From: Xenorhabdus poinarii G6
GTDB taxonomy: Bacteria; Pseudomonadota; Gammaproteobacteria; Enterobacterales; Enterobacteriaceae
Reading direction: 5' to 3'
Length of the DNA stretch: 64,000 nucleotides
Assembly (NCBI RefSeq): GCF_000968175.1
Contig: NZ_FO704551.1
Coordinates: 124,001-188,000, forward strand
Shown here: one piece after another, positions 42,394-64,000 of the stretch
Layout of the letters: each line of letters begins with the position of its first letter
Position numbering within the stretch: the first letter of the stretch is position 1
Program-made: the position numbers and the translations under genes
The notes under the pieces: model-generated
What the model was told of the DNA's origin: nothing
The model's input: only the letters and a program-made list of their open reading frames with translations
The model's database searches: none

Positions 42394-42540
42394 TGCTATT
42401 CAATTCCTGCACTTTTTTGGTGCATTGTAGCTTATTTAAGTTATAACTTGATGGATTATTCTACTAAAAATGCCTTCTTCTTCTCATTTTTGAGGCACGG
42501 AAACCGGCCTCAGTATGGGGAATCAAGCGTATTGGTCGTG

Positions 42541-42564
42541 AAAAGCGCCCATCCAACGATGGGC
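42541..42564 (-). terminator. Terminator after glnA
   Basis: GCCCATC (42547-42553) pairs with GATGGGC (42558-42564). On the glnA strand the stem is followed by GCTTTTC. It lies between glnA and glnL, where partial termination lowers glnLG relative to glnA. Confidence 0.7.
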
Positions 42565-42620
42565 TAAAAAGTTTCACGGCAACAAAAAAACACGTCGGGA
42601 GCGGTGGATCATCAACAGCA

Positions 42621-46563: not shown

Positions 46564-48135
46564 CTATGGCGTACAATCAGGAGGCGTCCCAGGAAGAGCA
46601 GTTGAAATTCTGCCTTTCCAAACTTTTGTATGGGAAGATTTATCATCATTATCAATGAAATATGTAAATTGAATCATACCTGTATGACAATTTTCATATT
46701 CAGAGCATCCTGTTAAGTAATTGTATGGAATTTCTATTGTTCCAACTGCTGTTATGCCATCACTCCCTGGTTGGTCTGGTATCGATCCATTAAACCATTT
46801 ATCAACATTCCTATATCTTGCATTAATTTTTAAGTGTAATCTTATTTTTGATCCCAATGGTGGCTTCGTCATATCATTTGGATCGTTAGTCCCTGTGATC
46901 TGAACAAATAATCCAGTACTATTTAAACCATTATTAGATATATTTTCACAGGTAACAACATTGTTGTACTTAATATCAACACAATCCATATTGTCAAAAT
47001 CGTCTATAATATTACTAGGATCACTAGCTCCAAAACTAGAATAAACTACACATTTATCATAATAAACTGGAGCCGGCCATGGTTCACCGGTATATGTTAA
47101 TTCTAAAGGATTGGATATTAAAATATTAGCGCTATCTGTATGAACTATCTTATAATAAAACTCGGAAACAACTCCAACAGGAAAAATATAATAAGGCAAT
47201 GATATAGAAAATTTATCTAATTTATCTATATCTACAAGAGGGTAATCAACACCGGCATCATGGTTATTAACATAGAATCTGATTGTATCATTTTCTCTTG
47301 CACCCAAATAATGAGGTATTTTTACAAGAAATTTTGTATCACCATGGTTCACTAATTCTCCTCCATTAAACCCTTCGATTTCAGGAGAAGGTAGCTTATG
47401 TGTTACACCTGCAGGATCATTGTGAGTAATATTTAATGTGTCAGACGAAGGTTCTGCACCACCAACACCAAAAACTTGAGTATTTAGACTTAAAATTAAA
47501 GCTTCATCTAGTTTGGGATAAATATAGAACGATAACCTTCCATGCTGATCTGATGCCAAATATATTCCTTTGTAATAGAAAAAATTTTGAACATTTACTG
47601 GAGTATGATTATCATATTCATAGATATTAATTTTATCAAGAAGATTATCATCATTTGTATTTATTAATACGGCGAGATAGGGAATTGGATTATTCTTTTC
47701 ATCTTTAATCAGAGTACTGACACGAGTAGATATTCCTTTAGGAGGAGTATTTTCACTAGTAGGTACATCTAGAGAAGTTCGATCAAAATTCAGGCGTAAA
47801 GAATCATTATTTAACGTTCTGGCGGTATATTTAATTTTTTGTGAAGGAAAGCCTCCTGAACTAGATGATGGAACTATATCAAAACTGACAGTATCACCAC
47901 TATTAACTGTTGATGATATCCTTAATTGTATTATAAATGTTCCTGTTGTGCCATTTTCAGAAAGATTTATATTAGGAATTGGGCTTTCTAGTGTAACATT
48001 AGTTTTATTTTCCAAATATATATACGAGCCAGGAGATATTGCAGTATCAGATGTTAAAGTTACATTCAGTATTAATATTTGTCCTTTAATGACACTGTAG
48101 TTATCAGGGGGGAATGCAACTGTATTGTTACTCAT
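46564..48135 (-). CDS. Tandem Ig-like array protein, copy 1
   Basis: 523 residues, four modules. An N-terminal Ig-like module (about 8-110, VIKGQILILNVTLTSDTAIS) is followed by a Big_1-type Ig module (about 115-240, VSTLIKDEKNNPIPYLAVLI and DQHGRLSFYIYP). The third module (about 250-350) reads GDTKFLVKIPHYLGARENDT. The C-terminal module (about 360-523) opens with YDKCVVYSSFG and closes with TKVWKGRISTA. No signal peptide, anchor or barrel is visible. It is the most divergent full-length copy together with copies 3 and 4. GAGGT lies six bases before the ATG. Function unknown. Confidence 0.8.
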   Translation of the reverse strand: MSNNTVAFPPDNYSVIKGQILILNVTLTSDTAISPGSYIYLENKTNVTLESPIPNINLSENGTTGTFIIQLRISSTVNSGDTVSFDIVPSSSSGGFPSQKIKYTARTLNNDSLRLNFDRTSLDVPTSENTPPKGISTRVSTLIKDEKNNPIPYLAVLINTNDDNLLDKINIYEYDNHTPVNVQNFFYYKGIYLASDQHGRLSFYIYPKLDEALILSLNTQVFGVGGAEPSSDTLNITHNDPAGVTHKLPSPEIEGFNGGELVNHGDTKFLVKIPHYLGARENDTIRFYVNNHDAGVDYPLVDIDKLDKFSISLPYYIFPVGVVSEFYYKIVHTDSANILISNPLELTYTGEPWPAPVYYDKCVVYSSFGASDPSNIIDDFDNMDCVDIKYNNVVTCENISNNGLNSTGLFVQITGTNDPNDMTKPPLGSKIRLHLKINARYRNVDKWFNGSIPDQPGSDGITAVGTIEIPYNYLTGCSEYENCHTGMIQFTYFIDNDDKSSHTKVWKGRISTALPGTPPDCTP

Positions 48136-48321
48136 TATGTTACCTCATTTTATGGAAATAATAATTTATGTCGAAATAATTTTATGGGTTAATAACTATG
48201 ATTTTAATTTCTATTTATTGATTCTTATATTCTATTGTCGTATTCCATTAACTATAGCCACATAGTTATTATATGACTGTAAAATTAAATATTTTCAGCT
48301 ACATTTTAGTGTAAATAGTTA

Positions 48322-49539
48322 TCATGCATAGGGGTCTGTGTCTATCTCACTTTTCCAAACTTTTCCGTATGTAACATTAAGATCAGTATCATCTCCTATC
48401 TGATAATCAAAGAAAATATGGCCATTTGTACCATCTTCATATCCCATATTATTTTTTATATCACTATGATCTATACTAATTTTTAATGTGGCTGTCTTTC
48501 CTCCTATATCATCTGGATGTGTTTGCATTGTTTGATTATAAGATTTTGTAACTGTTCTGGTGCTTGAATTAATATACATATTTAATGTTATGTTAGCCCC
48601 AAAAGGTACTTTGCTGTTATCATTGGGATCGTTAGTTCCTGTTATTTTAACAAATAACCCTGCATTCTCTGGATTTTGTTCGGCTATGGTGGCATCGTTA
48701 ATAACATCGTAATCTTCATTTACAAGAGCACCACCACTAGAATACACTTTGCATTGTTCGTATGTTCGATAAACATCCGTCCAGGGTTTATTGGGTCTGC
48801 CTTTGTAAGTTAAAGGTAATGCGTTTGATTTTTCTTCTATAATATCTCCAGAATCTCTGATAAGAACATAGAAGAAATTAGAGTATATATCTTTTTTAAA
48901 AATGCCATATGGCAATTTAGTGAAAATATGTGCATTACTTTGGTCTTCTACCCGAATGTAATAATTAGTATACTCTTCATTCACGAATAACAAAATATAA
49001 TCACCTAATTTTTTCTTGTCATAATTTGGAATGTCAACTTCAAATTTACTATCTCCGTCTGATTTCAAGTTTTCGCCAAAAAAATTAAGTATTTGTGGCT
49101 GGTCAAATTTAGTTTCCATGCTATCCAGCGAATTATTAACAATAAAGACAGTATGTTTAGCAGCTACTAATTTGGTTGATCCAGTTACATTAGAATATAA
49201 GTTTAAAATAACAGGAAGAGACTGATATGGTTTAATGAAAAATAATATCTTCCCTTGTCCATCGGTATTTATCAGAAATCCTTCTTTGTTATCTTGTGTG
49301 ATTATAGGAATCTCATTATTTTGATCTGCATCATAAATTTTGACTCTATTAAGATTTCCTGAAATAGAATCAGATATAAATATTTGAGTATTAGATAAAT
49401 AATCTCCATTTATATCTACAACTTGTGCAGTGACTGTTATTTTTTCATTATCATTAGTAGTGGGTAGATTAGGGACGGACAAGAAATAGTTATCCATATT
49501 TAATCTTAATGACTCGAGATTTATTTCATTAACATTCAT
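48322..49539 (-). CDS. Tandem Ig-like array protein, copy 2 (short form)
   Basis: 405 residues; it lacks the first Ig-like module of its relatives and begins directly at the second (NLESLRLNMDNYFLSVPN aligns with the end of module 1 in the other copies). Remaining parts: the Big_1-like module (VTAQVVDINGDYLSNTQIFI, TDGQGKILFFIKP), the third module (GDSKFEVDIPNYDKKKLGDY) and the C-terminal module (YEQCKVYSSGG to IFFDYQIGDD and YGKVWKSEIDT). AAGGAAAG precedes the ATG, so the short form is likely real, not a missed start. Function unknown. Confidence 0.8.
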   Translation of the reverse strand: MNVNEINLESLRLNMDNYFLSVPNLPTTNDNEKITVTAQVVDINGDYLSNTQIFISDSISGNLNRVKIYDADQNNEIPIITQDNKEGFLINTDGQGKILFFIKPYQSLPVILNLYSNVTGSTKLVAAKHTVFIVNNSLDSMETKFDQPQILNFFGENLKSDGDSKFEVDIPNYDKKKLGDYILLFVNEEYTNYYIRVEDQSNAHIFTKLPYGIFKKDIYSNFFYVLIRDSGDIIEEKSNALPLTYKGRPNKPWTDVYRTYEQCKVYSSGGALVNEDYDVINDATIAEQNPENAGLFVKITGTNDPNDNSKVPFGANITLNMYINSSTRTVTKSYNQTMQTHPDDIGGKTATLKISIDHSDIKNNMGYEDGTNGHIFFDYQIGDDTDLNVTYGKVWKSEIDTDPYA

Positions 49540-49829
49540 TCTACTTTCCTTTTTTAGTGTGTTGACATTCTAAATGTCAATTAATCTATTGACGTTTTTA
49601 TAATTATAATTATAATTATGATGTTTTATGTTGTATGATTCCTTGGATTCATTTGTTATGACGAATACAAGGCCATTTATATACTAATAAATTTATATTT
49701 TTACTCTATTGTGTTTGCTTTCTACTGAAATTTCATAGTTGTAATGATTTTTTATTTTCAGTGTTGCTGAAAATATTTTTACTTAAAACGACATAAAGAT
49801 TATTTTATATCACTTTATAAATAATCATT

Positions 49830-51416
49830 TTATTCAGTGTCAATTTTTCCTTGCCAAATGTTCCCATAATATTTGGTTTCAATGTTTCCTGGGTCAGAAG
49901 GATCATAAGCATAATAGTCAAAATAGATGTTTCCAGCAGAACTATTAGGATATGATTCTATATGATTGAGATAATCAATAGGAATACCGTATACATATGT
50001 TGCTGTATGATCGAAACCTTTATCAAGGTTTGTGGGCATAGTAAAACTAAATGAGTATTGACTTTTCTTCTTATAAGAATCTATATATAACGTTAATACA
50101 ATGTTAAAGCCAAATGGTACTTTGGTTTTGTCATTAGTATCATCAGTTCCTGTTATTGCAATATATAATGCTGAGTGTCCTGTGTTATTATAATAACGAG
50201 ATATAGAGAAATAGTTTATTAAATCATGTTGTTGGATTAGTGCTGTTTCTTTTAAAGCACCAAAACTAGAATAAACAACACATGGATCGTAAATCCTATT
50301 GATGTTATCAAGAGGTGCAGCCTTACCGCCGCCATTATAGGAGAATCCTAGTGATGCTGATTTTTTTATGCTTGCATCATGTGTGGCAATGATATAAGAC
50401 AAAGCAACATCTTCATTTTGCGGTAATATTGAATAAGGTAAATCAAAAAAATAATTATCTAGGTTATTTGTGTTTCCAACAGAAATTTCTTGATTGGAAT
50501 ATTTTCCATTCACATAGAATAGTATAATATCATTTTTATTAGAATAATCGTATCGATCAACTTCAACAGAAAAAGTTGTTGAATCAGGATCCCCTATTAA
50601 TGCACCGCCTGATGCCTCTAGAATAGAGGGTGGGGCTAAAAAATCAGTATGAATATTTGAGAGTTTACCTGGATCAGTCGGATTATCATCAATAACAAAT
50701 AAACTATTTTTTGATAGTTGAAAATTTTGTGTGTTGGTTACTCCAGCTTGTAAATTAAGTACAAATTCGGTATTGGTAGCCGGATAAACATAAAAAACAA
50801 TCATGCCATTTTCTTCTGTTTTTAAATAAAAAACCGATTTATTATATAAAGTTTCTTTTTTTACCTCAGATGCCGCATCTTTATGATTTTTGAAAATCCT
50901 GACACTATCTAATTTAGTATTATTATTTGACATTATAGTGATAGGGATTCCAGACACACCTTGACCATTTTTCTTATCTTTTATTGTGGCAAAAACTTTA
51001 GAATATATCAGGCCATTTGGTGGGATGTTAGTATTAACATTTTCTGTTTGAGTTATGGAGTTTAAATATCCATTGCCAAAGGTAAGGGCTAATGAATTAT
51101 TATCAATTTCTACAACCGTATATTTAAAGGATGTTCTAGTAAATCCATTTATATTCTTAGGTACAATATCAAAACTAATTTCACTTTGATCTGCTAGTCC
51201 TTCTTTAATAATAAATACAATTTCGACTGAGTATGCGTTTTTTGGCATTGTATAACTGGTTTTTTCTGGCGTAAGATTAACCGGATTTTGTATTTCAAAT
51301 CCGGCATAAGGTGTAATACTTTTTTCAGAAGTGTTAAAATAAATCGTCATTCTTAGTAATTGACCATCGACTATATTTGATTTTGGTGGAAGAGATGACG
51401 TTATAGTATTTGCCAT
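49830..51416 (-). CDS. Tandem Ig-like array protein, copy 3
   Basis: 528 residues with the full four-module plan: module 1 (NIVDGQLLRMTIYFNTSEKS), module 2 (VFATIKDKKNGQGVSGIPIT, EENGMIVFYVYP), module 3 (STTFSVEVDRYDYSNKNDI) and the C-terminal module (YDPCVVYSSFG, GNIYFDYYAYDP, YGNIWQGKIDT). No secretion signal is visible. The AGGGA ribosome binding site is seven bases upstream. It is separated from its neighbours by AT-rich gaps of about 260-290 bp. Confidence 0.8.
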   Translation of the reverse strand: MANTITSSLPPKSNIVDGQLLRMTIYFNTSEKSITPYAGFEIQNPVNLTPEKTSYTMPKNAYSVEIVFIIKEGLADQSEISFDIVPKNINGFTRTSFKYTVVEIDNNSLALTFGNGYLNSITQTENVNTNIPPNGLIYSKVFATIKDKKNGQGVSGIPITIMSNNNTKLDSVRIFKNHKDAASEVKKETLYNKSVFYLKTEENGMIVFYVYPATNTEFVLNLQAGVTNTQNFQLSKNSLFVIDDNPTDPGKLSNIHTDFLAPPSILEASGGALIGDPDSTTFSVEVDRYDYSNKNDIILFYVNGKYSNQEISVGNTNNLDNYFFDLPYSILPQNEDVALSYIIATHDASIKKSASLGFSYNGGGKAAPLDNINRIYDPCVVYSSFGALKETALIQQHDLINYFSISRYYNNTGHSALYIAITGTDDTNDKTKVPFGFNIVLTLYIDSYKKKSQYSFSFTMPTNLDKGFDHTATYVYGIPIDYLNHIESYPNSSAGNIYFDYYAYDPSDPGNIETKYYGNIWQGKIDTE

Positions 51417-51598
51417 GGTAGATCCCTATGATTTTAAAATATTATTTAGAGATTAAAATATTTTTGCTGTTTTTTTATATACCATTAGATAGCCAAGTTT
51501 CTTGCCGAAGAGATTATGCAATACTTATTTGTTTGTATAATGAAAAAAAATTATCAGTTGATAACTAAATACTATTAGAGATAAATAAAAGATTTGGA

Positions 51599-51632
51599 AC
51601 TATCCTGACTTATCTTAGTTGTCTAGGATAGT
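51599..51632 (-). terminator. Possible terminator after array copy 4
   Basis: ACTATCCT (51599-51606) pairs with AGGATAGT (51625-51632) around an 18-base loop, about 45 bp past the stop of copy 4. On the gene strand the stem is followed by TCCAAATCTTTTATTT. Confidence 0.5.
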
Positions 51633-51677
51633 CCCGAATATTTATTAGTTGATTGCGAGAATACTCAACCATTTTGA

Positions 51678-53285
51678 CTATTTACAAGGGTTAGGATCAT
51701 TGTCAGCTGGAATCGTTACAATAGATGCATTCCATTTTTTACCATATGCTTTTTTATTAGTATCTAAGGTAAAGCTATAATCAAAATAAATATTTCCTCC
51801 AGCGCCACCCTCATATGTTTCGACATTAACAAGATCAGTACATGGGACATGAATAATTGCAGAAAATGTATTGTCAACTTGTTTTTTTATTGGCTGAGCT
51901 GGGTAAGTTCTTATATAGTTTTTATTTTGGGAGTTGAGATATAAATTTAATGTTATTTGAGTACCATTTGGTATCGCTGGTGTTCCTCCACTTTGCTCAC
52001 TTAAAATTTCAATATATAATCCAGTACCATCACCATGAACATATTTCATTATTGCAGCATAATTAACTGCATTATTATTTGGTATAATATTATAATCCCT
52101 GACTCCTAGGCTAGTATGAACTATACAACTAGCATAGTCTCTTTTTACATCAGGATCTGGTTCATATGGTGTTCCTCCTGTATAAGTGACGGGTAAATGT
52201 AGTGAGGCTCTCATATCTCCTCGTTGGTTAATAACAACATACGAAAACTTACTGGGTTTATTAAGTTCAAAAATTTGATAAGGTAATTTAGCAACGGTAT
52301 TACTTTCTCCTATTTGACATTGAGGGTCAGTAATCAATACATTATAGCCACTATAATTAGAGTTAATAAAAAATAATATTATGTCATGTTCTTTTGCATC
52401 CGGGTATTCTACTGACACATCAAATTTTCTTATCCCTGGGCTAGCATAAAGATTTCCTCTATCAAGTCCCCATACTATTGGAAATGGTAAGGATTTAAGA
52501 AAGCTAGGAGGGTCACTATTGATAATGTAAAGTTTCTGAATTGCGTAAACTGAACTATCATCCACACCTGGAATCATGGATATAAATTCTACTATTTCAG
52601 ATAATGAGTTTTTGGGATAAATATAAAACACTATATTTCCTTGGTTATCTGAATTTATAAAGAAACCCTTTGTGGAATTATCGAGAATTTGTGGATAAAT
52701 TTGAGAAGAGGAGGCAGTGTTTGAAGCATAAATTGAAATCTTATCTATATCATCAAATAAACTTGATGTTATAAATATTGGGGCATTGGCTAAATATTGG
52801 TTATTTTTATTTTTTATGGTTGCCGTTACTGCACTAGATTTATGGCTGCCGTTATCTGGAGGAAAATTAGGTGCGCCATCAGCGGGTATATTTAAATATG
52901 GCTGAGATAGGTTGAGAGCCATTGAATCTAAGTTAACGGTATTAATATTGATAGCTTTACATTTAAAAGTTTGTAAGGAAATATCAGGAATGTTATTTGG
53001 AGTTATATTAAATGTAATATAAGAATCATCTTGGGTGGCACTGGATACCTCCAAATTAAAAGTCGCTATATAGATATTTTTATTGTGAGAAGATTGAATG
53101 AAGTGTTTAGGCGCATTTGAATCAGAATAAATATTAACGCCTTGACTAAAAGAAACAGATGAATTGCTGGGTAGTAATTTACCCGGTGGCAGAGTAATAG
53201 TAACAGTTAAGACAATAGTTTGACCTATAATCAAATTTGCATTGCTATGCAAGGAATAGGTAATATTGATATCTGTATTTTGCAT
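51678..53285 (-). CDS. Tandem Ig-like array protein, copy 4
   Basis: 535 residues. Module 1 (NANLIIGQTIVLTVTITLPP) carries the N-A-x-L-I-I-G-Q-T string shared with copies 5-9. Module 2 is VTATIKNKNNQYLANAPIFI with SDNQGNIVFYIYP. Module 3 is GIRKFDVSVEYPDAKEHDII. The C-terminal module reads YASCIVHTSLG, GNIYFDYSFTLD and YGKKWNASIVT; here H replaces the usual Y of the motif. It is intermediate between the divergent left copies and the similar right copies. AGGAT precedes the ATG. Confidence 0.8.
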   Translation of the reverse strand: MQNTDINITYSLHSNANLIIGQTIVLTVTITLPPGKLLPSNSSVSFSQGVNIYSDSNAPKHFIQSSHNKNIYIATFNLEVSSATQDDSYITFNITPNNIPDISLQTFKCKAININTVNLDSMALNLSQPYLNIPADGAPNFPPDNGSHKSSAVTATIKNKNNQYLANAPIFITSSLFDDIDKISIYASNTASSSQIYPQILDNSTKGFFINSDNQGNIVFYIYPKNSLSEIVEFISMIPGVDDSSVYAIQKLYIINSDPPSFLKSLPFPIVWGLDRGNLYASPGIRKFDVSVEYPDAKEHDIILFFINSNYSGYNVLITDPQCQIGESNTVAKLPYQIFELNKPSKFSYVVINQRGDMRASLHLPVTYTGGTPYEPDPDVKRDYASCIVHTSLGVRDYNIIPNNNAVNYAAIMKYVHGDGTGLYIEILSEQSGGTPAIPNGTQITLNLYLNSQNKNYIRTYPAQPIKKQVDNTFSAIIHVPCTDLVNVETYEGGAGGNIYFDYSFTLDTNKKAYGKKWNASIVTIPADNDPNPCK

Positions 53286-53436
53286 TTTATTATCCTATTA
53301 TTAATAATATTCAATAATTAATTTAAAGTTACTTTATTGATATATTCAGTTGAACAGATAAATATAACAGAAATGGTTTATGGAAACTATCAACGAAGGG
53401 GAAGTTTAAAATCGGTTTAGTATTGGTGAACGTCAG

Positions 53437-53469
53437 TAAAGCTCCCCCTTCATAGAAGGGAGAGCTTTA
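53437..53469 (-). terminator. Hairpin after array copy 5
   Basis: TAAAGCTC-CCCTTC (from 53437) pairs with GAAGGG-GAGCTTTA (to 53468) with one small bulge and a 3-base loop, only a few bases past the stop of copy 5. Confidence 0.6.
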
Positions 53470-53471
53470 CT

Positions 53472-55025
53472 TTATTCTGGTTGGGTGGAAATCAGCCCTT
53501 CCCAAATTTTTCCGTATTGTTTTTTGTTTTCAATGCTTAATTCATAATCAAAATAAATTCTACCCTCAAAACCAACAAGAATATCTTTAGGTATGTGAAA
53601 TTGCAATATTGCGATACCATCCGTATTAACCTGTGTTGGCATGGGATATAACCATTGTTTTTTTGTAGAATAACTTGTTGTATCAATATACATGTTTATT
53701 TTCACGTTGTAACCTAATGGGATCTTTCCTGGTATGTTATCTCCTCCTAATATTTCAATAAACAACCCTGTATTGACAGGGTTATTATTATCCAGATATC
53801 TCTTTATACCATCGTAATTGATGTATGTACCCTCTGGTATTTCAACAACACCAGCACCAAGGCTAGTATATACTTTGCAAGTATCATAATTCCGTGTTAC
53901 ATTTTCCAGAGGATAATATGTAGCACCGCCCATATAAGTCACGTTTGTGGATTGAGACGTTAGGCTACCAGCGGCTTCCCCAAGAATTACGACATAGTTA
54001 ATATCGGAAGGAACATTGTATTCGAAAATATCATAAGGTAATTTGTAAAAATAATTACTTGCACCCAGCTCTGCTTCAGGATTACCTACAATAACATAAT
54101 GGCCACTATATTCACGTTTAGCCCCTGGCTTCTCCAGGTTTTTGGTGAAAAATACTATATAATCATCAGGTTTAGCTGGTGAGTATTTGGGGATGGCAAT
54201 ATAAAAATCCGATTCGCCACCTTCAGAAGTTAAGGGACCAGGAAAGCCCCCCAAAATATTTGGTGGTAATAAACCATCTGGAAATTTAGGAATTTCAGTA
54301 TTAACAATAAAAAGGGGAGAGCTAGCTGCTACTGGTTTATCGACATTTGCAATCCAGGATTGTAGTTCAAGCACCATGGAATCTGCTTTTTGTGGATAAA
54401 TATAAAATTTTATATTTCCATCCTTGTCTGAATTGACCGATACTCCGGAATAATCCCCGATTTTTTGTATCGGAATTTCAGTTTTATTATCAGAGTCTAA
54501 TATCTTACAATATGATAAATTTTCTGGTATTTGTGATCTAATAAAGACAGGCGTATTGCCCAGGGGAATTGCCTTTTTATCACGCAAAAGGGTGGTAGCC
54601 ATAGCCCCTTTTACTGGTTGGCTTGGATTTCTATTGGGTGTATCCAAGAACATATCACTTAACATCAAAGGCAAGGTATCCGGGTTTATAGTTCTTGCTG
54701 TACCCGTAAAAACGAATGGAGCAGCATTAGAGCCGTTTACTGTAATGGTAAATTGTATTGAATCATGTTCTTTTATGACGTTAGGATCACTGCTGACCAC
54801 TAGTTCTGTTATATAGACATAAGCATTGTTTCCCATATCCTTTAATGTCAGATTGCCAGCTGGAACCGAAATATTTGGACTGGCACCTGTAAATGTAATG
54901 TTTACATTTTGCGTGTTTATTGCGCCGTTTGTTGTTAGCGTCACCATTAAAGGAACGGTCTGACCGATGATAAGGTCAGCATTGCTTGGAATAGTGGTTG
55001 TTAATACCCCGTTTTTCGTGACCAT
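53472..55025 (-). CDS. Tandem Ig-like array protein, copy 5
   Basis: 517 residues. Module 1 (NADLIIGQTVPLMVTLTTNG) and the 5' leader are almost identical to copy 6, while modules 3 and 4 differ clearly (ISTQPE ending, no acidic tail; YDTCKVYTSLG, GRIYFDYELSIE, YGKIWEGLIST). The Big_1-like module contains ATTLLRDKKAIPLGNTPVFI and SDKDGNIKFYIYPQKADSM. Module 3 is GESDFYIAIPKYSPAKPDDY. No signal peptide is seen; AGGTG lies upstream of the ATG. Function unknown. Confidence 0.82.
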   Translation of the reverse strand: MVTKNGVLTTTIPSNADLIIGQTVPLMVTLTTNGAINTQNVNITFTGASPNISVPAGNLTLKDMGNNAYVYITELVVSSDPNVIKEHDSIQFTITVNGSNAAPFVFTGTARTINPDTLPLMLSDMFLDTPNRNPSQPVKGAMATTLLRDKKAIPLGNTPVFIRSQIPENLSYCKILDSDNKTEIPIQKIGDYSGVSVNSDKDGNIKFYIYPQKADSMVLELQSWIANVDKPVAASSPLFIVNTEIPKFPDGLLPPNILGGFPGPLTSEGGESDFYIAIPKYSPAKPDDYIVFFTKNLEKPGAKREYSGHYVIVGNPEAELGASNYFYKLPYDIFEYNVPSDINYVVILGEAAGSLTSQSTNVTYMGGATYYPLENVTRNYDTCKVYTSLGAGVVEIPEGTYINYDGIKRYLDNNNPVNTGLFIEILGGDNIPGKIPLGYNVKINMYIDTTSYSTKKQWLYPMPTQVNTDGIAILQFHIPKDILVGFEGRIYFDYELSIENKKQYGKIWEGLISTQPE

Positions 55026-55335
55026 GATTTTATCACCTTATAAAGAGTTGCAGTCTCAATCATATCGAGATAAATACAGCTATATCCCCAAAAAAATCAG
55101 TGGGAATTTTATCTCTTAGATTTTTTTGTAAATATAATTTAATTAACTCCAAACAAAATATAGTTAACTTTTATAACCGATCGTTGTTAAATTATTTTTT
55201 ATCCATTTTTGTATTTTTTACGTTTTTTTTAATTTGAAATTTTTTATTCAGTTTCTTATAGAGTATTTAACATTGACTGAAAAAGACTTGCTATAGTAAC
55301 TGACTATTTTTATAAAACGCCAATGAACAGCTTAA
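55026..55335. other. Spacer between array copies 5 and 6 with a conserved 3' element
   Basis: 310 bases of AT-rich sequence. The part next to copy 5 is near-identical to the leader of copy 6 (from 56963). The part next to the copy 6 stop contains a segment (about 55247-55320) that recurs twice near 57165-57250 and 57360-57450, with arms of the type TAGTCAGTT and AACTGACTA. Confidence 0.6.
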
Positions 55336-56962
55336 TTAATTATCGTCGCCGTCATCACCTTCATCTTCTGTTGGATACTCTGAGCGGGTATCAATGCCTC
55401 CCGCCCAAATTTTCCCATATTTAATATCGCTTCCATAACCAACTTCATAGTCGAACCAAATGCTCTCCGCGCCACCAAAGATATTGACAAGATGTTTCTT
55501 TTCAATATGAAAAATTAAGGAGTAACGCCCAGTCTCCTGATTTTTTGTGATCGGCATAATGTCCTGCCCAACAGCCTTTTGGGTATTACGGTTTGCTGCT
55601 TGAATATACATATTTAACGTCACCTTCGCGCCCAAAGGAACTTTTCCCTGTGAATTGTTATCTCCGACAATCTCAACAAATAATCCGGTCACTGGTGTGT
55701 TCGGATCCTTAGGGTGATTATACAGATATTTTTTTATACTGTCATAACCCAGGGTAATACCTTGTGGGATAGGTGTGTTGCTAGGAATAAGGCCAAGGCT
55801 GGTATAAACATTACAGGGGTCATAGTCCCTTTTTATTGTTTTATCTGGAGAATATGTCGCTCCTCCCATATAAGTGACAGTGGTTAGTGAAGACGTTATC
55901 GAACCGGCCCCTTGCCCCAGAATGGCTACACAATTAAAATTATAGGGAATACTGATTTCAAAAATATCATAAGGCAGTGAATAATAATATTTTCCTAATC
56001 CTAACTCTATATTTGGATCTTTTACAGTAACATAATGACCAATATATTTACGCCCCACTTTTTTATTATTTTCTTCTTGTGTAAAAAACAGGATATAATC
56101 GGCCTTTTTTTGCATTAGGATATTTGAACACTCCCACATGAAAGTTTGATTCCCCCCCTTGAGCGATTAAAGGTTGGGCAAATGCCCCCAAGATATTTGG
56201 TTCTGGCATAGTATCTAGAGCATTGGGGATTTCAGTGTTAACAATAAAAAGAGGAGAGGAAGCTGGTACTGGTTGATCGACATTTACAATCCAGGATTGT
56301 AGTTCAAGCACCATGGAATCTGCTTTTTGTGGATAAATATAAAATTTTATATTACCATCCTTGTCTGAATTGACCGATACCCCGGAATAATCCCCGATTT
56401 TTTGTATCGGAATTTCAGTTTTATTATCAGAGTCTAAGATCTTACAATATGATAAATTATCCGGCACTTTTGCCATGATAAAGACAGGCGTATTGCGCAG
56501 AGGGCTGTTTTCTTTATCTAGCAAAAGGGTAGTAACCTGAGCACCTTTCGCTGGTTGCGTTGGATTTATATTGGGTGTATCTAAGAACACATCATGTAAC
56601 ATCAAAGGCAAGGTATCCGGGTTTATAGTTCTTGCTGTACCCGTAAAAACGAATGGATCCGCATTTAAGCCGTTTACTGTAATGGTAAATTGTATTGGAT
56701 CGTGTTCTTTTATAACATTAAGATCGTTGCTGACCGTTAATTCTGTTATATAGACATAAGCATTGTTTCCCATATCCTTTAATGTCAGATTGCCAGCTGG
56801 AACCGAAATATTTGGACTGGCACCTGTAAATGTAATGTTTACATTTTGCGTGTTTATTGCTCCGTTTGTTGTTAGCGTCACCATTAAAGGAACGGTCTGA
56901 CCGATGATAAGGTCAGCATTGCTTGGAATAGTGGTTGTTAATACCCCGTTTTTCGTGACCAT
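55336..56962 (-). pseudogene. Tandem Ig-like array protein, copy 6 (frameshifted, chimeric)
   Basis: Two frames, 56066-56962 (N-terminal 298 codons) and 55336-56139, make one 541-residue protein if a single extra base is removed. The extra G is at 56101/56102: all relatives read ATAATCGCC there, this copy ATAATCGGCC, so the coding strand loses phase right after the conserved PNAKKGDY. Residues 1 to about 270 are nearly the same as copy 5, the rest nearly the same as copy 7, including the acidic tail EDEGDDGDDN. It is thus a recombinant that later broke, or a sequencing error. Confidence 0.8.
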
Positions 56963-57249
56963 GATTTTATCACCTTATAAAGAGTTGCAGTCTCAATCAT
57001 ATCGAGATAAATACAGCTATATCCCCAAAAAATTCAGTGGGAATTTTATCTCTTAGATTTTTTTGTAAATATAATTTAATTAACTCCACACAAAATATAG
57101 TTAACTTTTATAACCAATCGTTGTTAAATTATTTTTTATCCATTTTTGCGTTTTTTTAAATTTGGGATTTTCTAGTCAGTTTCTTATAGAGTATTTAACA
57201 TTGATTGGAAAAGACTTGCTATAGTAACTGACTATTTTTATAAAACGAC
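56963..57249. other. Leader of array copy 6
   Basis: AT-rich leader almost identical to that of copy 5, running into the repeated 3' element of the next unit. No gene is seen. Confidence 0.5.
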
Positions 57250-57346
57250 AATGAACAGCTTAATTAATTATCGTCGCCGTCATCACCTTCATCTTCTGTT
57301 GGATACTCTGAGCGGGTATCAATTCCTCCCGCCCAAATTTTCCAAT
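57250..57346 (-). pseudogene. Orphan 3' end of a deleted array copy
   Basis: The minus strand reads KIWAGGIDTRSEYPTEDEGD and its stop, the last 30 or so codons of a copy-6/7 type gene, with no body attached. A second full version of the same 3' end plus about 90 bp of downstream sequence follows at once (from about 57347) as the real end of copy 7. It is a scar of unequal recombination or tandem duplication. Confidence 0.75.
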
Positions 57347-57456
57347 AACTTTATTTGAAATTTTTTAGTCAGTTTCTTATAGAGTATTTAACATTGACTG
57401 AAAAAGGCTTGCTATAGTAACTGACTATTTTTATAAAATGCCAATGAACAGCTTAA

Positions 57457-59088
57457 TTAATTATCGTCGTCGTCATCACCTTCATCTTCTGTTGGATACT
57501 CTGAGCGGGTATCAATCCCGGCCGCCCAAATTTTTCCATATTTAATATCGCTTCCATTACCAACTTCATAGTCGAACCAAATACTCTCTGCGCCACCAAA
57601 GATATTGACAAGATGTTTCTTTTCAATATGAAAAATTAAGGAGTAACGCCCAGTCTCCTGATTTTTTGTGATCGGCATAATGTCCTGCCCAACAGCCTTT
57701 TGGGTATTACGGTTTGCCGCCTGAATATACATATTTAACGTCACCTTCGCGCCCAAAGGAACTTTTCCCTGTGAATCTTTATCTCCGACAATCTCAACAA
57801 ATAATCCGGTCACTGGCGTTTTTTTATCCTTAGGGTGATTATACAGATATTTTTTTATATTGTCATAACCCAGGGTAATACCCTGTGGGATTGGTGTGTT
57901 ACTAGGAATAAGGCCAAGGCTGCCATAAACATTACAGGGGTCATAATCCCTTTTTATTGTTTTATCTGGAGAATATGTCGCTCCTCCCATATAAGTGACA
58001 GTGGTTAGTGAAGACGTTATCGAACCGGCTCCTTGTCCCAGAATAGCTACACAATTAAAATTATAGGGAACACCAATTTCAAAAATATTATAAGGCAGTG
58101 AATAATAATATTTTCCTAATCCTAACTCTGTAGTTGGATCGTCTACAGTAACATAATGGCCAATATATTTACGTTCTGCATTTGTTGTATGTTTTTCTTG
58201 CGTAAAAAACAGGATATAATCGCCTTTTTTTGCATTAGGATATTTAAATACTCCTACAGCAAAATCTGATTCCCCCCCTTGAGCGATTAAAGGTTGGTCA
58301 AATGCCCCCAAGATATTTGGTTCAGGCATAGTTTCTAGAGCATTGGGGATTTCAGTGTTAACAATAAAAAGAGGAGAGGAAGCCGGTACCGGTTGATCGA
58401 CATTTACAATCCAGGATCGTAGTTCAAGCACCATTGATTTAGTATTTCGTGGATAAATATAAAATTTGATATTGCCATGCTCGTCTGAATTGACTAATAA
58501 CCCAGAATAATAACCTACCATTTGTGGTTGAATTTCGGTTTGATCATCAGAACCCAAAATCTTACAATATGGTAAATTTTCTGGCACCTGTGACATGATA
58601 AAGACAGGCGTATTGCTCAAGGGGAGGCTATTGTTATCCAGTAAAAGGGTGGTAACCTGAGCACTTTTCGCTGGTTGTGTTGGATTTATATTGGGTGTAT
58701 CTAAGAACACATCATGTAACATCAGAGACAAGGTATCCGGGTTTATGGTTCTTGCTGTACCCGTAAAATTGAATGGATCCGCGTTTGAGCCGTTTGCTGT
58801 AATGGTAAACTGTATGGGATCATGTTCTTTTATGACGCTAGTATCACTACTAACAATTAATTCTGTGCTACCGATATATTCAGAAGTAGAACCTTTTAAT
58901 GGTTGAAAACTTATTTCATTAGATGAAAACGAAATATTTTTATCTCCTGTTATTGTAAAATTTTGATTAACAGGGTTTAATATATTATTTACTGTTAAGG
59001 TTATAGTTAAGGGAAAGCTCTGCCCGATAATAAGATCGGCTTTTTTTGAAATGTTGACGGTCAATATATCTTTTCTTGTTGCCGGCAT
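57457..59088 (-). CDS. Tandem Ig-like array protein, copy 7
   Basis: 543 residues from the start at 59088 (MPATRKDILTVNISKKADLI), which has GGAG seven bases upstream and matches copy 8; the frame is open 49 codons further but that part is leader. Module 1 has KKADLIIGQSFPLTITLTVN, module 2 TTLLLDNNSLPLSNTPVFIM, and module 3 GESDFAVGVFKYPNAKKGDY. The C-terminal module has YDPCNVYGSLG, ESIWFDYEVGNG and YGKIWAAGIDTRSE, and there is an acidic tail EDEGDDDDDN. No signal peptide is seen. It is complete and likely functional. Confidence 0.82.
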   Translation of the reverse strand: MPATRKDILTVNISKKADLIIGQSFPLTITLTVNNILNPVNQNFTITGDKNISFSSNEISFQPLKGSTSEYIGSTELIVSSDTSVIKEHDPIQFTITANGSNADPFNFTGTARTINPDTLSLMLHDVFLDTPNINPTQPAKSAQVTTLLLDNNSLPLSNTPVFIMSQVPENLPYCKILGSDDQTEIQPQMVGYYSGLLVNSDEHGNIKFYIYPRNTKSMVLELRSWIVNVDQPVPASSPLFIVNTEIPNALETMPEPNILGAFDQPLIAQGGESDFAVGVFKYPNAKKGDYILFFTQEKHTTNAERKYIGHYVTVDDPTTELGLGKYYYSLPYNIFEIGVPYNFNCVAILGQGAGSITSSLTTVTYMGGATYSPDKTIKRDYDPCNVYGSLGLIPSNTPIPQGITLGYDNIKKYLYNHPKDKKTPVTGLFVEIVGDKDSQGKVPLGAKVTLNMYIQAANRNTQKAVGQDIMPITKNQETGRYSLIFHIEKKHLVNIFGGAESIWFDYEVGNGSDIKYGKIWAAGIDTRSEYPTEDEGDDDDDN

Positions 59089-59395
59089 TTTATTTCTCCA
59101 TATATGATTGTGTGAATTATTAAATTCTATATAGCCTGGTTTGTTTAATGGCTTTATTGCTGGTTTAAATATTTTAATGAACTCCTTCAAACTAAACTCA
59201 TTAAGATAAAAAGTATAATAATAAAATTTTATCACCTGATAACCATAAGCTATCTCTGCGAGAATATAATGTATTTAAATATAAAACAAAATTTTAAAAT
59301 TAATTTTATCCATAAATTGATGACTAAAAATAGTTTTCGTTTGAAGAATGAGTATTAAATATTTTTCAAATACCTCCTGTTAGTAGGATAGATGG
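59089..59395. other. Leader of array copy 7
   Basis: AT-rich leader closely similar to that of copy 8 (62531-62826) over its whole length, ending at the ISAs1-family insertion. No gene is seen. Confidence 0.55.
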
Positions 59396-60640
59396 TAGGG
59401 CAACCGCATGAATGTTCAAATATCATCCAAACCGGAAAACCCTGCTTGTAATACCTGCTCCAAAAAGCCGATTTTCATCCAGGCTCGTTTACGTTTCATT
59501 CTGATACTTAATTTAGTCGTTTCTTTTTTTAACATATTTAACGCGACCCGTCTCAATATCGCGATGTTTTCCGCTGCATTTTTACGGTAAATTTTGCAGT
59601 CATCTTCCCGAAAGGAGACATCCAGTATCCAGTGAAGATTATTTTCGATCTGCCAGTGGCTACGTATGGCCTGAGCAAACTGTTCTTCTGTTAACTCTGC
59701 AGAACTGATGGCGTAACGGTATTCCAGGCTGGCGGATTTTCCTTTTTCTTGCCGGTATCCGACTGTCACGCCAACTGTTTTTAATTCAGGCCATTCCGGG
59801 AAATGGGCGACTAATGAACTCGCATCCATGACATGACTTTGCCTAATTTCAATACGTCCATGCCCCTGTTCTATGTGTACTTTTTCTCTTGTCAATGACC
59901 CGGAGAGTTGTCCCGCCAGTGCCTCCCTGACTACACGGTGGAGATTTTTCTGATTGTCTTTCACACTCAGCAAATAATCAGCGCCGCCTCAATAATGTCC
60001 CGGGCTATCTGGGTTTGACATCCCATTGCATCAATGGAAATGAGGGCGCCTTTCAGTTCCAATAACTTAAACAGTTCAGGGATGGCAGTGATCTCATTTG
60101 ACTTACTTTGTGTTCTGACCTGACCAATGACGAGTTGGTTTGCAGCGGCGTAAGCACTCACCATGTGGAGAGTTGAATAACGATCTTCACGATGATAAGA
60201 GCCACGCAATACTTTACCGTCGATCGCCACTAATTCCCCTTTGGTGAGTTGGTGAACAGAACGCATCCAGTTGATAAAACAGAGATTAAATTGTTCTGGT
60301 TTGATGCGAGAAAGGACCCGGGCAATGGTGTCATCAACAGGAACGCCTTCTTTGAACATACCTTGTTTAAGAAACCAGTCATGATGGCCTTCAGTATATT
60401 CCTGAATATCACTCCAGCCCTCCGCCCCCGCAATAATCGCGCAAAGGGTGGCAAACAAAATGTCAAATAAAGGATAGGCCACTTTGGCCGTCTGGCGTGG
60501 GTCTTTGATATCGGAGAAATGGTCAGTGAAACTGTCAAGGTACATGGTATTGACTCTCAAAAGAGAGTATAAGATCACAGCTATTTACTCGAATCAACTT
60601 AATTTACCGTTGGCTAAAAAACATTCGCGATCTTGCCCTG
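59396..60640 (-). mobile_element. ISAs1-family insertion sequence
   Basis: 1245-bp element. The ends are imperfect inverted repeats: TAGGGCAACCGCATGAATGT at 59396 against, inward from 60640, CAGGGCAAGATCGCGAATGT. It is flanked by the 10-bp direct repeat GGATAGATGG (59386-59395 and 60641-60650). The corresponding site upstream of copy 8 (around 62827) has one uninterrupted GGATAGATGG followed by the same sequence as at the right flank here. It is the natural empty site. Confidence 0.88.
59416..60545 (-). pseudogene. ISAs1-family (H-repeat type) transposase, frameshifted
   Basis: The N-terminal part (MYLDSFTDHFSDIKDPRQ, VAIDGKVLRGSY, ISIDAMGCQTQIARDIIEA) and C-terminal part (LLSVKDNQKNLHRVVREAL, EEQFAQAIRSHWQIENNLHW) lie in different frames. 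Restoring one G in GCGGCG near 59981-59990 yields EAGADYLLSVKDNQ and a single protein of 376 residues, the family's normal length. So one base is missing and the copy is probably inactive, unless the break is bypassed by frameshifting. DDE residues are seen in AIDGK, SIDAMG and NNLHW context. Confidence 0.85.
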
Positions 60641-60650
60641 GGATAGATGG

Positions 60651-60900
60651 CTTCTTTATCAGGCCATGTCGCATTACGAGTTAATCAGAGATCTCGAGGT
60701 TGATTGTTTTTTATCCTGCAAATCGATAAAATTGTTCCGCCACCGATAGACACTTACCTTCCTTTATTGATAATCACTACCGTCGGTTTGCCGTCAGCAA
60801 GAAATCAATGGTCTGCCCGTTGATATCAACCACCCGGTAAAATCATTGCTACTGGTCTTTGACTTTAGTACATTTTTATAAAATCCCAATGACCAGCTTA
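60651..60900 (-). pseudogene. Decayed IS6-like transposase fragment in the array spacer (copy a)
   Basis: The minus strand contains FYRVVDINGQTIDFLLTA, which resembles the IS6-family catalytic region (YLYRAVD-G-TIDFLL), followed after a gap by CLSVAKQFYRFAA as a possible C terminus. Stop codons interrupt it. The same sequence occurs at 62827-63087. Confidence 0.5.
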
Positions 60901-60901
60901 A

Positions 60902-62530
60902 TTAATTACCATCATTTTCATCGTCTGTTAGATCCTCTGAGCGGGTATCAATCCTCCCTGCCCAAATTTTCCCATATCTAATATCGCTTCCATGACCAAC
61001 TTCATAGTCGAACCAAATTCGACCTGCGCCACCCGTGATATTAACAAGATCTTCCTTTGCAATATGAAAAATTAAGGAGTAACGCCCAGTATCCTGATTT
61101 TTTGTGATCGGCATAATTTTCTGTCCAACAGGCTTTTTGGTATTACAGTTAGCCGCCTGAATATACATATTTAACGTCACCTTAGATCCCAAAGGGGCGC
61201 TTGTTTTGACATTTGTATCTCCGACAATCTCAATAAATAATCCGGTCACTGGCGTGTTTGGATCCTGAGGGTGATTAGACAGATATTTTTTTATACTGTC
61301 ATAACCGAGGGTAATACCTTGTGGAATAGGGGGATTATTAATAACACCAAGGCTGTTATAAACATTACAGGGATCATAATGTCTTTTTATTGTTGTATCT
61401 GGAGAGTATGTCGCACCTCCCATATAAGTGACAGTGGTTTGTAAAGACGTTAGCGAACCAGCTCCTTGCCCTTGGATAATGATATAGCTAAAATTATAGG
61501 AAACACCGGCTTCAAAAATATTACAAGGTACTGAATAAAAATATTTTCCTAAACCCAACTCTGTTTTCGGATCGTTTACAATAACATAATGACCACTATA
61601 TTTAATCGCTGAATTTTGTATGCTTAGGTCTTGTGTAAAAAACAGGATATAATCGCCTTTTTTTGCATTCGGATAATCATAGACTCCCACCTGGAAATCA
61701 GGCTCTCCCCCCTCAGAAACTAAAGGTCTGGCAAATGCCCCTAATATATTTGGCTCTGGAACAGAATGCATGAAATCAGGTATTTCGGTATTAACAATAA
61801 AAAGGGGAGAGGCCGCTGGCTCTGACTTACCGACATTCACAATCCAGGATTCTAATTCAAGTACCATGGAATCTGATTTTTGTGGATAAATATAAAATTT
61901 TATATTTCCATCCTTGTCTGAATTGATGGATAATCCGGTATAATCCCCGATTTTTTGTAGCAGAATTTCAGTTTTATTATCAGAGTCCAAAATCTTACAA
62001 TATGATAAATTTTCTGGTATTTTTGATCTGATAATGATGGGGGTATTGCTCAAGGGATTGTTCTCTTTATCTAGCAAAAGGGTGGTAACCGTAGCCCCTT
62101 TTACTGGTTTTTTTGGATCGTTATTGGGTGTATCTAAGAACATATCACTCAACATCAGAGACAATGTATCCGGATTTATGGTTTTTGCTGTACCTTCAAA
62201 ATCGAATTTATCAGCATTAGAACCGTTTGCTTCAATGGTAAATTTTATTGGATCACGTTCTTTTATGACGTTAGGATCACTGCTAACAATTAATTTTGTG
62301 CTAGCGGTATATACAGAAGTAGAATCTGGTAATCGTGTAAATTTTATGTTTTCAGATGAAAACGAAATGTTTTTCGCACCTGCACCTGGTGTTATTATAA
62401 AGCTTGCATTAGTAGGGTTTATTGCATTTTTTGCTGTTAAGGTTATAGTTAAGGGAACGATCTGCCCTATGATAAGATCAGCTTTTTTTGCAATATTGAC
62501 GGTCAATATATCTTTTATCAATGTTGGCAT
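60902..62530 (-). CDS. Tandem Ig-like array protein, copy 8
   Basis: 542 residues with all four modules. Module 1: KKADLIIGQIVPLTITLTAK. Module 2: VTTLLLDKENNPLSNTPIII and SDKDGNIKFYIYPQKSDSM. Module 3: GEPDFQVGVYDYPNAKKGDY and YSGHYVIVNDPKTELGLGKY. C-terminal module: YDPCNVYNSLG, GRIWFDYEVGHG and YGKIWAGRIDTRSE, with tail TDDENDGN. GGAG stands seven bases upstream. Closest to copy 9 in its 3' half and to copy 7 in its leader. Confidence 0.82.
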   Translation of the reverse strand: MPTLIKDILTVNIAKKADLIIGQIVPLTITLTAKNAINPTNASFIITPGAGAKNISFSSENIKFTRLPDSTSVYTASTKLIVSSDPNVIKERDPIKFTIEANGSNADKFDFEGTAKTINPDTLSLMLSDMFLDTPNNDPKKPVKGATVTTLLLDKENNPLSNTPIIIRSKIPENLSYCKILDSDNKTEILLQKIGDYTGLSINSDKDGNIKFYIYPQKSDSMVLELESWIVNVGKSEPAASPLFIVNTEIPDFMHSVPEPNILGAFARPLVSEGGEPDFQVGVYDYPNAKKGDYILFFTQDLSIQNSAIKYSGHYVIVNDPKTELGLGKYFYSVPCNIFEAGVSYNFSYIIIQGQGAGSLTSLQTTVTYMGGATYSPDTTIKRHYDPCNVYNSLGVINNPPIPQGITLGYDSIKKYLSNHPQDPNTPVTGLFIEIVGDTNVKTSAPLGSKVTLNMYIQAANCNTKKPVGQKIMPITKNQDTGRYSLIFHIAKEDLVNITGGAGRIWFDYEVGHGSDIRYGKIWAGRIDTRSEDLTDDENDGN

Positions 62531-62826
62531 ATTATTTCTCCATATATGGTTGTGTGAACTGTTAAATTTTATATTACCAGTTTGTTTAATGACTTTATTA
62601 CTGGTTTAAATAGTTTAATGAACTTCTTCAAACTAAACTCATTAGAATAAAAAGTACAATAATAAAATTTTATCACCTGATAATCATAAGATATCTATGC
62701 GAGAATGTAATGTATTTAAATATAAAGCAGAATTTTAAAATTAATTTTATCCATAAACTGATGACTAAAAATAGTTTTCGTTTGAAGAATGAGTATTAAA
62801 TCTTTTTCAAATACCTCCTGTTAGCA
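62531..62826. other. Leader of array copy 8
   Basis: AT-rich leader closely similar to that of copy 7. It ends at GGATAGATGG (62827-62836), the uninterrupted version of the site where the ISAs1 element inserted upstream of copy 7. Confidence 0.55.
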
Positions 62827-63087
62827 GGATAGATGGCGTCTTTATCTGGTCATGTCGCATTACGAGTTAATCAGAGATCTCGAGGTTGATTGTTTTTTAT
62901 GCTGCAAATCGATAAAATTGTTTCGCCACCGATAGACACTTACCTTCCTTTATTGATAATCACTACCGTCAGTTTGCCGTCAGCAAGAAATCAATGGTCT
63001 GCCCGTTGATATCAACCACCCGGTAAAATCATTGCTACTGGTCTTTGACTTTAGTACATTTTTATAAAATACCAATGACCAGCTTAA
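62827..63087 (-). pseudogene. Decayed IS6-like transposase fragment in the array spacer (copy b)
   Basis: Almost identical to 60641-60900, with the same FYRVVDINGQTIDFLLTA and CLSVAKQFYRFAA readings and the same stop codons. Because both copies are broken in the same way, the fragment decayed before the gene-plus-spacer unit was duplicated. Confidence 0.5.
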
Positions 63088-64000
63088 TTAATTACCATCA
63101 TTTTCATCGTCTGTTAGATCCTCTGAGCGGGTATCAATGCCTCCTGCCCAAACTTTCCCATATCTAATATCGCTTCCATGACTAATTTCATAATCAAACC
63201 AAATTTTACCCGCACCACCAAAGATATTAACAAGCGTTTTCTTTTCGATATGAAAAATTAAAGAGTAACGCCCTGTGTCCTGATTTTTTGTGATGGGCAT
63301 AATGTCCTGCCCAATAACCTTTTTGGTATTACGGTTTTCTGCCTGAATATACATATTTAACGTCACTTTAGATCCCAAGGGAGCGTTTGTTTTTGAATTT
63401 TTATCCCCAACAATCTCAATAAATAATCCGGTCACTGGCGTGTTTGGATCTTTAGGGTGATTAGATAGATATTTTTTTATACTGTCATAACCGAGGGTAA
63501 TACCTTGTGGAATAGGAGGATTATTAATCACACCAAGGCTGTTATAAACATGACAAGGGTCATAATCCCTTCCTATTGTTATATTAGGGGAATATTTTGC
63601 ACCTCCCATATAAGTTACGGGCTCTGGTATGGAAGTTATCGAACCGGCTCCTTTCCCCAGGATAACTATATAGTTAAAGGCACAGGGAGTACCGATTGGA
63701 AAAATATCATAAGGTAGTGTATAAAAATATTCACCTAAGCCTAGTTCTGTCTCCGGATCGCCTACAGTAACATAATGACCACTATATTGACGTTTTGCAT
63801 TTTGTGTATGTCTTTCTTGTGTAAAAAACAGGATATAATCGCCTCTTTTTGCATTCGGATAATCGTAGACTCCCACATAAAAGTTTTGCTGACCCCCTTG
63901 GGCAATTAAAGGGCCTGGATATCCTCCTAAGATATTTGGGCCTGGAATCGTTTTCATGAAGTCAGGCATTTCAGTATTAACAATAAAAAGGGGAGAGGTC
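63088..64000 (-). CDS. Tandem Ig-like array protein, copy 9 (5' end beyond the window)
   Basis: The frame continues through the right edge. At the edge it reads TSPLFIVNTEMPDF, the end of module 2, so the gene starts outside; the ATG at 63969 is internal. Module 3 (FYVGVYDYPNAKRGDY, YSGHYVTVGDPETELGLGEY) and the C-terminal module (YDPCHVYNSLG, GKIWFDYEISHG, YGKVWAGGIDTRSE, tail TDDENDGN) are complete and nearly the same as in copy 8. The array therefore extends further to the right. Confidence 0.85.
   Translation of the reverse strand, partial: TSPLFIVNTEMPDFMKTIPGPNILGGYPGPLIAQGGQQNFYVGVYDYPNAKRGDYILFFTQERHTQNAKRQYSGHYVTVGDPETELGLGEYFYTLPYDIFPIGTPCAFNYIVILGKGAGSITSIPEPVTYMGGAKYSPNITIGRDYDPCHVYNSLGVINNPPIPQGITLGYDSIKKYLSNHPKDPNTPVTGLFIEIVGDKNSKTNAPLGSKVTLNMYIQAENRNTKKVIGQDIMPITKNQDTGRYSLIFHIEKKTLVNIFGGAGKIWFDYEISHGSDIRYGKVWAGGIDTRSEDLTDDENDGN

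What the first reader, a model, noticed from the sequence alone, without database searches (positions are those of the whole stretch)
46564..64000. Tandem array of at least nine paralogous four-module Ig-like proteins without export signals
Nine consecutive minus-strand genes share a modular plan and a C-terminal signature: Y-x-x-C-x-V-Y-x-S-x-G opening the last module, then FDY, then YGK-x-W-x-G-x-I-x-T. They are large and beta-rich, yet no signal peptide, lipobox, membrane anchor or autotransporter barrel is visible. Each has its own ribosome binding site and a 180-310-bp AT-rich spacer. Expansion of one unnamed family beside glnA suggests a strongly selected, variable trait such as host interaction, cytoplasmic inclusions or a cargo released by lysis or a phage-like device. 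The function is inference.
Basis: partly seen in the sequence, partly recalled or inferred. Interest (0 to 1): 0.88.

Follow-up and report, generated by a model that had tools for sequence, protein, structure and literature searches.

The report
Leaderless Ig-like partners of an invasin
A row of repeated genes in an insect-killing, nematode-carried bacterium turns out to belong to the neighbourhood and probably the control circuit of an invasin-type surface adhesin, yet their proteins lack the usual export tag, so how they reach their target, if they leave the cell at all, is an open question.

Summary
The array is real: nine family copies in the window (one frameshifted, one lacking module 1, one cut by the edge), two more just beyond, five elsewhere in the genome. 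The link recurs. In Xenorhabdus, 28 of 41 listed multi-gene clusters have an IAT gene within 6 kb. In Photorhabdus, 6 of 6 arrays sharing a contig with the large IAT lie downstream of it on the same strand; the 2 of 12 species without the family also lack that IAT. The predicted model of copy 8 matches intimin/invasin passenger domains best over modules 1-2. IATs and many copies share a palindromic upstream element (115 sites in 30 Xenorhabdus genomes, 0 for the reversed control), also found upstream of the large IAT in 10 of 10 Photorhabdus genomes with the family. No convincing Sec signal was seen on the family proteins, unlike ZirS or the Yfr4 'split passenger' operon. Best reading: accessory, recombining Ig-like partners of an IAT adhesin, export route unknown. 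New variant of a known kind; location and function of the proteins are inferred.

The parts
44433..46253 (-). Tail gene: 606-aa protein without obvious signal peptide, N-terminal Ig-like region plus RCC1 repeats (beta-propeller type)
   Evidence: Pfam RCC1_2 1.5e-6; similar genes end arrays in other Xenorhabdus loci L038, L045, L066, L069
46564..48135 (-). Family copy 1, 523 aa, modules 1-4
48322..49539 (-). Family copy 2, 405 aa, modules 2-4 only (no module 1)
49830..51416 (-). Family copy 3, 528 aa
51551..51564 (-). Perfect palindromic element upstream of copy 3 (part of the 26-base element, 0 mismatches)
51678..53285 (-). Family copy 4, 535 aa
53472..55025 (-). Family copy 5, 517 aa
55336..56962 (-). 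Family copy 6, frameshifted (ORFs 56066-56962 and 55336-56139); first half like copy 5, second half like copy 7
57457..59088 (-). Family copy 7, 543 aa
59229..59242 (-). Perfect palindrome upstream of copy 7 (26-base element with 3 mismatches)
59416..60578 (-). ISAs1-family transposase in two ORFs (59416-59973, 59967-60578), interrupting the array
   Evidence: NCBIfam transpos_ISAs1 5.2e-47 and 1.4e-65
60902..62530 (-). Family copy 8, 542 aa; the copy whose structure was predicted
62670..62683 (-). Perfect palindrome upstream of copy 8 (26-base element with 3 mismatches)
63088..64000 (-). Family copy 9, cut by the window edge (whole gene: chromosome 187088-188704). Beyond the window, upstream on the same strand, follow the IAT gene (189441-193259, 1272 aa) and copies 10 (stops inside) and 11

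Best explanation
The array is the accessory part of an inverse-autotransporter (invasin/intimin-type) adhesin locus. SHOWN by sequence comparison: an IAT with a leader peptide heads most of the array; the array is a recombining set of Ig-like proteins and ends in a protein with RCC1 repeats; IATs and many family genes share one palindromic upstream element; a similar layout exists in Photorhabdus. INFERRED: the proteins act with the IAT as separate, interchangeable adhesin modules that bind host (insect or nematode) surfaces or the IAT stalk, module 4 (most alike between members) being the common docking part and module 1 (fastest evolving in most pairs tested, duplicated or lost in variants) the varied recognition part. 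NOT KNOWN: whether and how they leave the cytoplasm; as no Sec signal is seen, I think release by an unmapped route (vesicles, lysis or a non-Sec exporter) is likelier than a purely cytoplasmic role.
Confidence: 0.5

Rival explanations
1. The proteins work inside the cell, for example as storage or inclusion proteins or as cytoplasmic binders, and sit beside the IAT only because they share its control.
For: No convincing Sec signal; few cysteines (median 3 in 116 members), which suits a reducing compartment.
Against: The fold of modules 1-2 matches surface adhesin domains best; the variable module 1 and the recombination look like a surface protein; the IAT link holds in two genera.
Confidence: 0.25
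2. They are cargo of a lysis- or phage-tail-derived release device, acting on host cells after release.
For: Leaderless proteins; in these genera several released factors lack Sec signals (recalled).
Against: I recognised no tail, holin or contractile-injection gene among the neighbours I looked at, but few neighbours were annotated. The N-terminus begins almost directly with the folded module 1.
Confidence: 0.12
3. The copies are silent donor cassettes from which the IAT passenger is varied by gene conversion.
For: Copies do exchange segments with each other (copy 6 is copy 5 followed by copy 7).
Against: No DNA similarity between the IAT gene and any of the eight array genes compared (copies 1-5, 7, 8 and the RCC1 gene; best E 0.14, 29 bp); most copies in the window have full ORFs and many family genes have their own upstream element.
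Confidence: 0.04
4. A decaying duplicate family without present function in this reduced genome.
For: Copies 6 and 10 are broken and an IS sits in the array.
Against: Overall dN/dS well below 1 in ten pairs; the family is present in 30 of 30 Xenorhabdus genomes searched.
Confidence: 0.05

Closest known systems
'Split passenger' IAT operons: Yfr4 of Yersinia frederiksenii and Ahy1 of Aeromonas hydrophila (Tsai et al. 2010, PMC3008723; section 15 read in full)
   Same: IAT gene first, then genes for separate proteins with passenger-type repeats
   Different: There the IATs are described among proteins lacking a passenger or having only a few repeats, there are 2-3 partners, and all four Yfr4-operon proteins are said to have Sec signals; here the IAT has its own long passenger, one array holds 11 partner genes, none with a convincing Sec signal, and the upstream element is repeated before many genes
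Salmonella ZirT-ZirS pathway (PMC2270342; passages seen)
   Same: An Int/Inv-family outer-membrane protein encoded next to its partner protein
   Different: ZirS has a cleaved Sec signal and its secretion depends on ZirT; the family proteins show no such signal and dependence is untested
Intimin and invasin passenger Ig domains (PDB 6tqd, 6tpl, 1cwv, 5n40, 4e9l)
   Same: Predicted fold of modules 1 and 2
   Different: Not attached to a barrel; sequence similarity to the local IAT not detectable and no Pfam Big_1 match in 24 members
[quoted passage not shown] passages seen)
   Same: Possibly the Photorhabdus counterpart: an invasin-containing multi-gene operon, called uncharacterised there
   Different: The passages describe only the invasin gene; that its other genes are this family is my inference and was not checked

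Membership tests
Inverse autotransporter (type Ve), for the family proteins themselves | N-terminal Sec signal peptide | tested here: not met
   145 family ORFs by hydropathy at all in-frame starts, the eight highest by eye; no SignalP available, so this is a weak test
Inverse autotransporter (type Ve), for the family proteins themselves | IAT_beta barrel | tested here: not met
   No IAT_beta hit in the window copies scanned or in 24 members
Inverse autotransporter (type Ve), for the family proteins themselves | Ig-like passenger domains | tested here: met
   By predicted fold only, modules 1-2; not by Pfam
Inverse autotransporter (type Ve), for the head gene at chromosome 189441-193259 | Signal peptide, IAT_beta barrel, Ig-like passenger | tested here: met
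   IAT_beta 2.5e-100, Big_1 2.3e-17, Invasin_D3 1.5e-11; hydrophobic leader read
IAT with separate partner proteins (ZirTS / Yfr4 type) | IAT gene beside partner genes on one strand | tested here: met
IAT with separate partner proteins (ZirTS / Yfr4 type) | Sec signal on the partner | tested here: not met
   contrast
IAT with separate partner proteins (ZirTS / Yfr4 type) | Partner secretion depends on the IAT | not testable with these tools
   needs an experiment
Lysis-released or contractile-injection cargo | Linkage to a delivery machine or a free N-terminal leader | tested here: inconclusive
   None recognised among the few neighbours looked at; module 1 starts near the N-terminus

The most novel reading that the evidence does not exclude
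A type Ve adhesin system with many leaderless, recombining Ig-like partners: proteins made without a Sec signal that nevertheless reach the surface and assemble on, or extend, a co-regulated inverse autotransporter in both Xenorhabdus and Photorhabdus. It would imply either an unrecognised export route or a lysis-supplied pool of adhesin parts.
Probability: 0.25. Interest if true: 0.85.

Novelty: new variant of a known kind. Interest (0 to 1): 0.7.

Why it matters
The separate partner proteins of inverse autotransporters that I found described with their signals (ZirS, the Yfr4 operon) carry Sec signals. A genus-wide, diversifying partner family without them, tied to the adhesin by neighbourhood, by a shared upstream element and by co-occurrence in two genera, makes a concrete question testable: how do leaderless adhesin modules get out, and what do they recognise in nematode or insect? 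It also supplies a candidate regulon, with a LysR-type gene that carries the element itself.

Tried and rejected
Donor-cassette model: no DNA similarity between the IAT gene and eight array genes. One-mismatch palindromes at 55030-55043 and 56967-56980 lie about 5 bp before the starts of copies 5 and 6 and overlap their ribosome-binding sites; I do not count them as the element. Chromosome site 1259744 lies inside a glycosyltransferase-like ORF and is probably chance. Notes of mine that the element precedes a metal ABC transporter do not hold: in L142 it lies between the end of a 226-aa gene and a 338-aa Ig-like protein gene that precedes an IAT, and in L141 it is not upstream of the transporter either. 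Pfam, NCBIfam and PHROGs gave nothing credible for the family (in one search one of 24 members hit TIG at 0.005). PDB sequence searches gave nothing credible. Foldseek of the whole model against PDB and viral structures returned generic multi-Ig proteins with low TM-scores. Module 4 alone: no clear relative. Sigma-70 promoter scan: 83 sites against a shuffle mean of 93.7; terminator-like sites 22 against 12.2 (sd 3.3), not followed up. Module 4 profile in 295 genomes of the order: 3 matched, all own genus; whole-family profile in 295 genomes of the family: 6 matched, in two genera, at most five candidates per genome being scored. First scan of genome contigs found nothing; the second found six Xenorhabdus loci. 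Papers: ten searches; none of the listings or passages I saw describes this family. Supplementary files could not be read, so the X. nematophila supernatant proteome of PMC3220699 (Text S7) was not checked.
Full report
WHAT THE WINDOW IS. The window is bases 124001-188000 of a single 3,659,523-base contig. The genus is Xenorhabdus: the named protein hits of copy 8 are Xenorhabdus, and so are the six loci found by a family profile. The size suggests X. poinarii G6; that is recalled, and the passages seen of the paper on that species (PMC4079199) confirm only that its genome is small.

THE OBSERVATION. Nine family copies lie on the minus strand from 46564 to the window end. Copy 6 is frameshifted, copy 2 lacks the first module, copy 9 is cut by the edge, and a broken ISAs1-type element separates copies 7 and 8. 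The search of the own genome returned 18 rows, which I read as 16 genes (copy 6 gives two rows) and one 23-residue fragment: 11 in the array (copies 10 and 11 lie beyond the window, copy 10 with stops) and five elsewhere. GC content of the array is about 29-40%, against 45-52% in 30001-44000.

THE MISSED HEAD GENE. Between copies 9 and 10, on the same strand, lies a 1272-aa inverse autotransporter with a leader peptide, an IAT_beta barrel (2.5e-100), Big_1 and Invasin_D3 domains. The array ends with a 606-aa protein with RCC1 repeats.

IS THE LINK GENERAL? In 30 Xenorhabdus genomes (all 30 have the family; all 30 have IATs) the 150 listed family genes form 65 clusters. Of 41 clusters with two or more genes, 28 have a listed IAT gene within 6 kb: 24 upstream on the same strand, 3 inside the array on the same strand, 1 upstream on the opposite strand; 5 are far from any listed IAT and 8 are on contigs with none. 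Of 24 single genes, 6 are near an IAT (2 with it upstream on the same strand, 4 on the opposite strand), 10 far and 8 on contigs with none. By genome, 26 of 30 have at least one such cluster; about 2% per cluster would be expected. In Photorhabdus (named), 10 of 12 species carry tandem copies. In 6 genomes array and large IAT share a contig, and the IAT is upstream on the same strand in all 6. In the other 4 the large IAT is on another contig; in three of these its barrel match lies within 3 kb of the contig's first base, towards which the gene runs. The 2 species without the family have only a shorter IAT type. The two Photorhabdus arrays I read end in proteins without obvious leaders, one of which (322 aa) has a clear Big_1 domain (3.7e-24).

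SHARED UPSTREAM ELEMENT. Upstream sequences of the copies showed a palindrome, TTATC-N3-TGATAA, followed by a T-rich stretch and CATT. The palindrome is exact in 32 of 144 family upstream regions (0.1 in Markov-resampled sequence), in 3 of 8 IAT upstream regions (0), and in 7 of 241 other ORFs of the same loci (0.1). The 26-base pattern in the own genome (up to 3 mismatches) hits 14 times, or 12 distinct sites, against 2 for the reversed pattern. Ten of the 12 precede family genes or IATs, one precedes a LysR-type regulator and one is inside an unrelated ORF. In 30 genomes (up to 2 mismatches) it occurs in 28, at 115 distinct sites, with no control hit in any genome; 38 sites lie within 700 bp upstream of a listed family gene and 35 of a listed IAT (0.19 expected in all). 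Of the remaining 42 sites I fetched regions around 21 (19 regions, plus the own-genome LysR region). Four sites lie 371-485 bp upstream of the same LysR-type gene (232 bp in the own genome); four lie between a gene pair that includes a TonB-dependent receptor (one of the four scanned: NCBIfam TonB-copper) and a divergent gene; two precede solo family-like genes near a gltX-like gene; one precedes a 338-aa Ig-like protein gene before an IAT; others were not resolved. Some of the 21 not fetched lie between an IAT and family genes that the truncated listing left out. In Photorhabdus the element lies 494-650 bp before the barrel match of the large IAT in 10 of 10 genomes with the family; all 12 Photorhabdus genomes have at least one site, the two without the family at other places; 11 genomes from 11 other genera have none. 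That the LysR gene is the regulator is inference from its carrying the element.

EVOLUTION. Variants lack module 1 (27 of 145 ORFs are 380-440 aa) or carry extra N-terminal domains (13 are over 610 aa); in two long ones checked the extra domain is a second module 1. Mean pairwise identity is 24.9, 25.6, 29.5 and 30.1% for modules 1 to 4 in 116 members. dN/dS in ten pairs is 0.20-0.55 overall; module 1 is highest in 7 of 10, up to 1.19 in one pair. Copy 6 is a mosaic: its first half is 87-100% identical in DNA to copy 5 apart from one 75% stretch, its second half 87-100% to copy 7.

EXPORT. No convincing signal peptide was found on 145 family ORFs by hydropathy at all in-frame starts, with the eight highest read by eye, while IATs complete at the N-terminus show one. 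SignalP was not available. This separates the family from ZirS (PMC2270342, passages) and from the Yfr4 operon (PMC3008723, section 15 read in full).

MECHANISM. Shown: linkage, co-occurrence, shared upstream element, passenger-like predicted fold of two modules, recombination, purifying selection. Inferred: the proteins act as adhesin partners or soluble adhesin modules, module 1 recognising and module 4 docking. Unknown: export. I give the partner reading 0.5, a cytoplasmic role 0.25, lysis or phage-like cargo 0.12, and decay or donor-cassette models 0.05 and 0.04. The corrections made on re-reading my calls did not change these odds.

NOVELTY. IAT operons with separate Ig-like proteins are known. 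A large, leaderless, diversifying partner family with a repeated upstream element is not described in the listings and passages I saw in ten searches. PMC3220699 (passages) says invasins have duplicated and diverged in Xenorhabdus and Photorhabdus but, in what I saw, not this family. PMC4683029 (passages) mentions an uncharacterised invasin operon PAU_02531-37 that may be the Photorhabdus locus, and PMC2266911 (passages) names Plu2057 and Plu2064 as invasin-like. Verdict: new variant of a known kind.

Noticed in passing
L133:3596-4525 (own genome 3112595-3113524), also L130, L131, L132, L147: A 309-aa LysR-type regulator with the palindromic element 232-485 bp upstream in five genomes: candidate regulator of the IAT/family genes.
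   Followed up: partly
L136, L139, L144, L148: The element also lies between a divergent gene and a gene pair that includes a TonB-dependent receptor (NCBIfam TonB-copper for the L148 gene; the others by eye), hinting at a metal link.
   Followed up: partly
L137:3075-4334, L143:3053-4327: Solo 419-424-aa proteins near a gltX-like gene that begin with a module-1-like stretch (by eye) and carry the element upstream; the first has no NCBIfam match.
   Followed up: no
L142:3804-4820: A 338-aa protein with a module-3-like start (by eye), with the element upstream, directly before an IAT-type gene.
   Followed up: no
window 9443-14440: A 1665-aa minus-strand ORF that looks RHS-repeat-like by eye; not searched.
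   Followed up: no
L041, L046, L078, L081, L083, L086: Another recurrent trailing pair in Xenorhabdus clusters: a 452-458-aa protein and a 520-555-aa protein with at most a weak Big_1-like match (E 0.038 in the L046 copy).
   Followed up: partly
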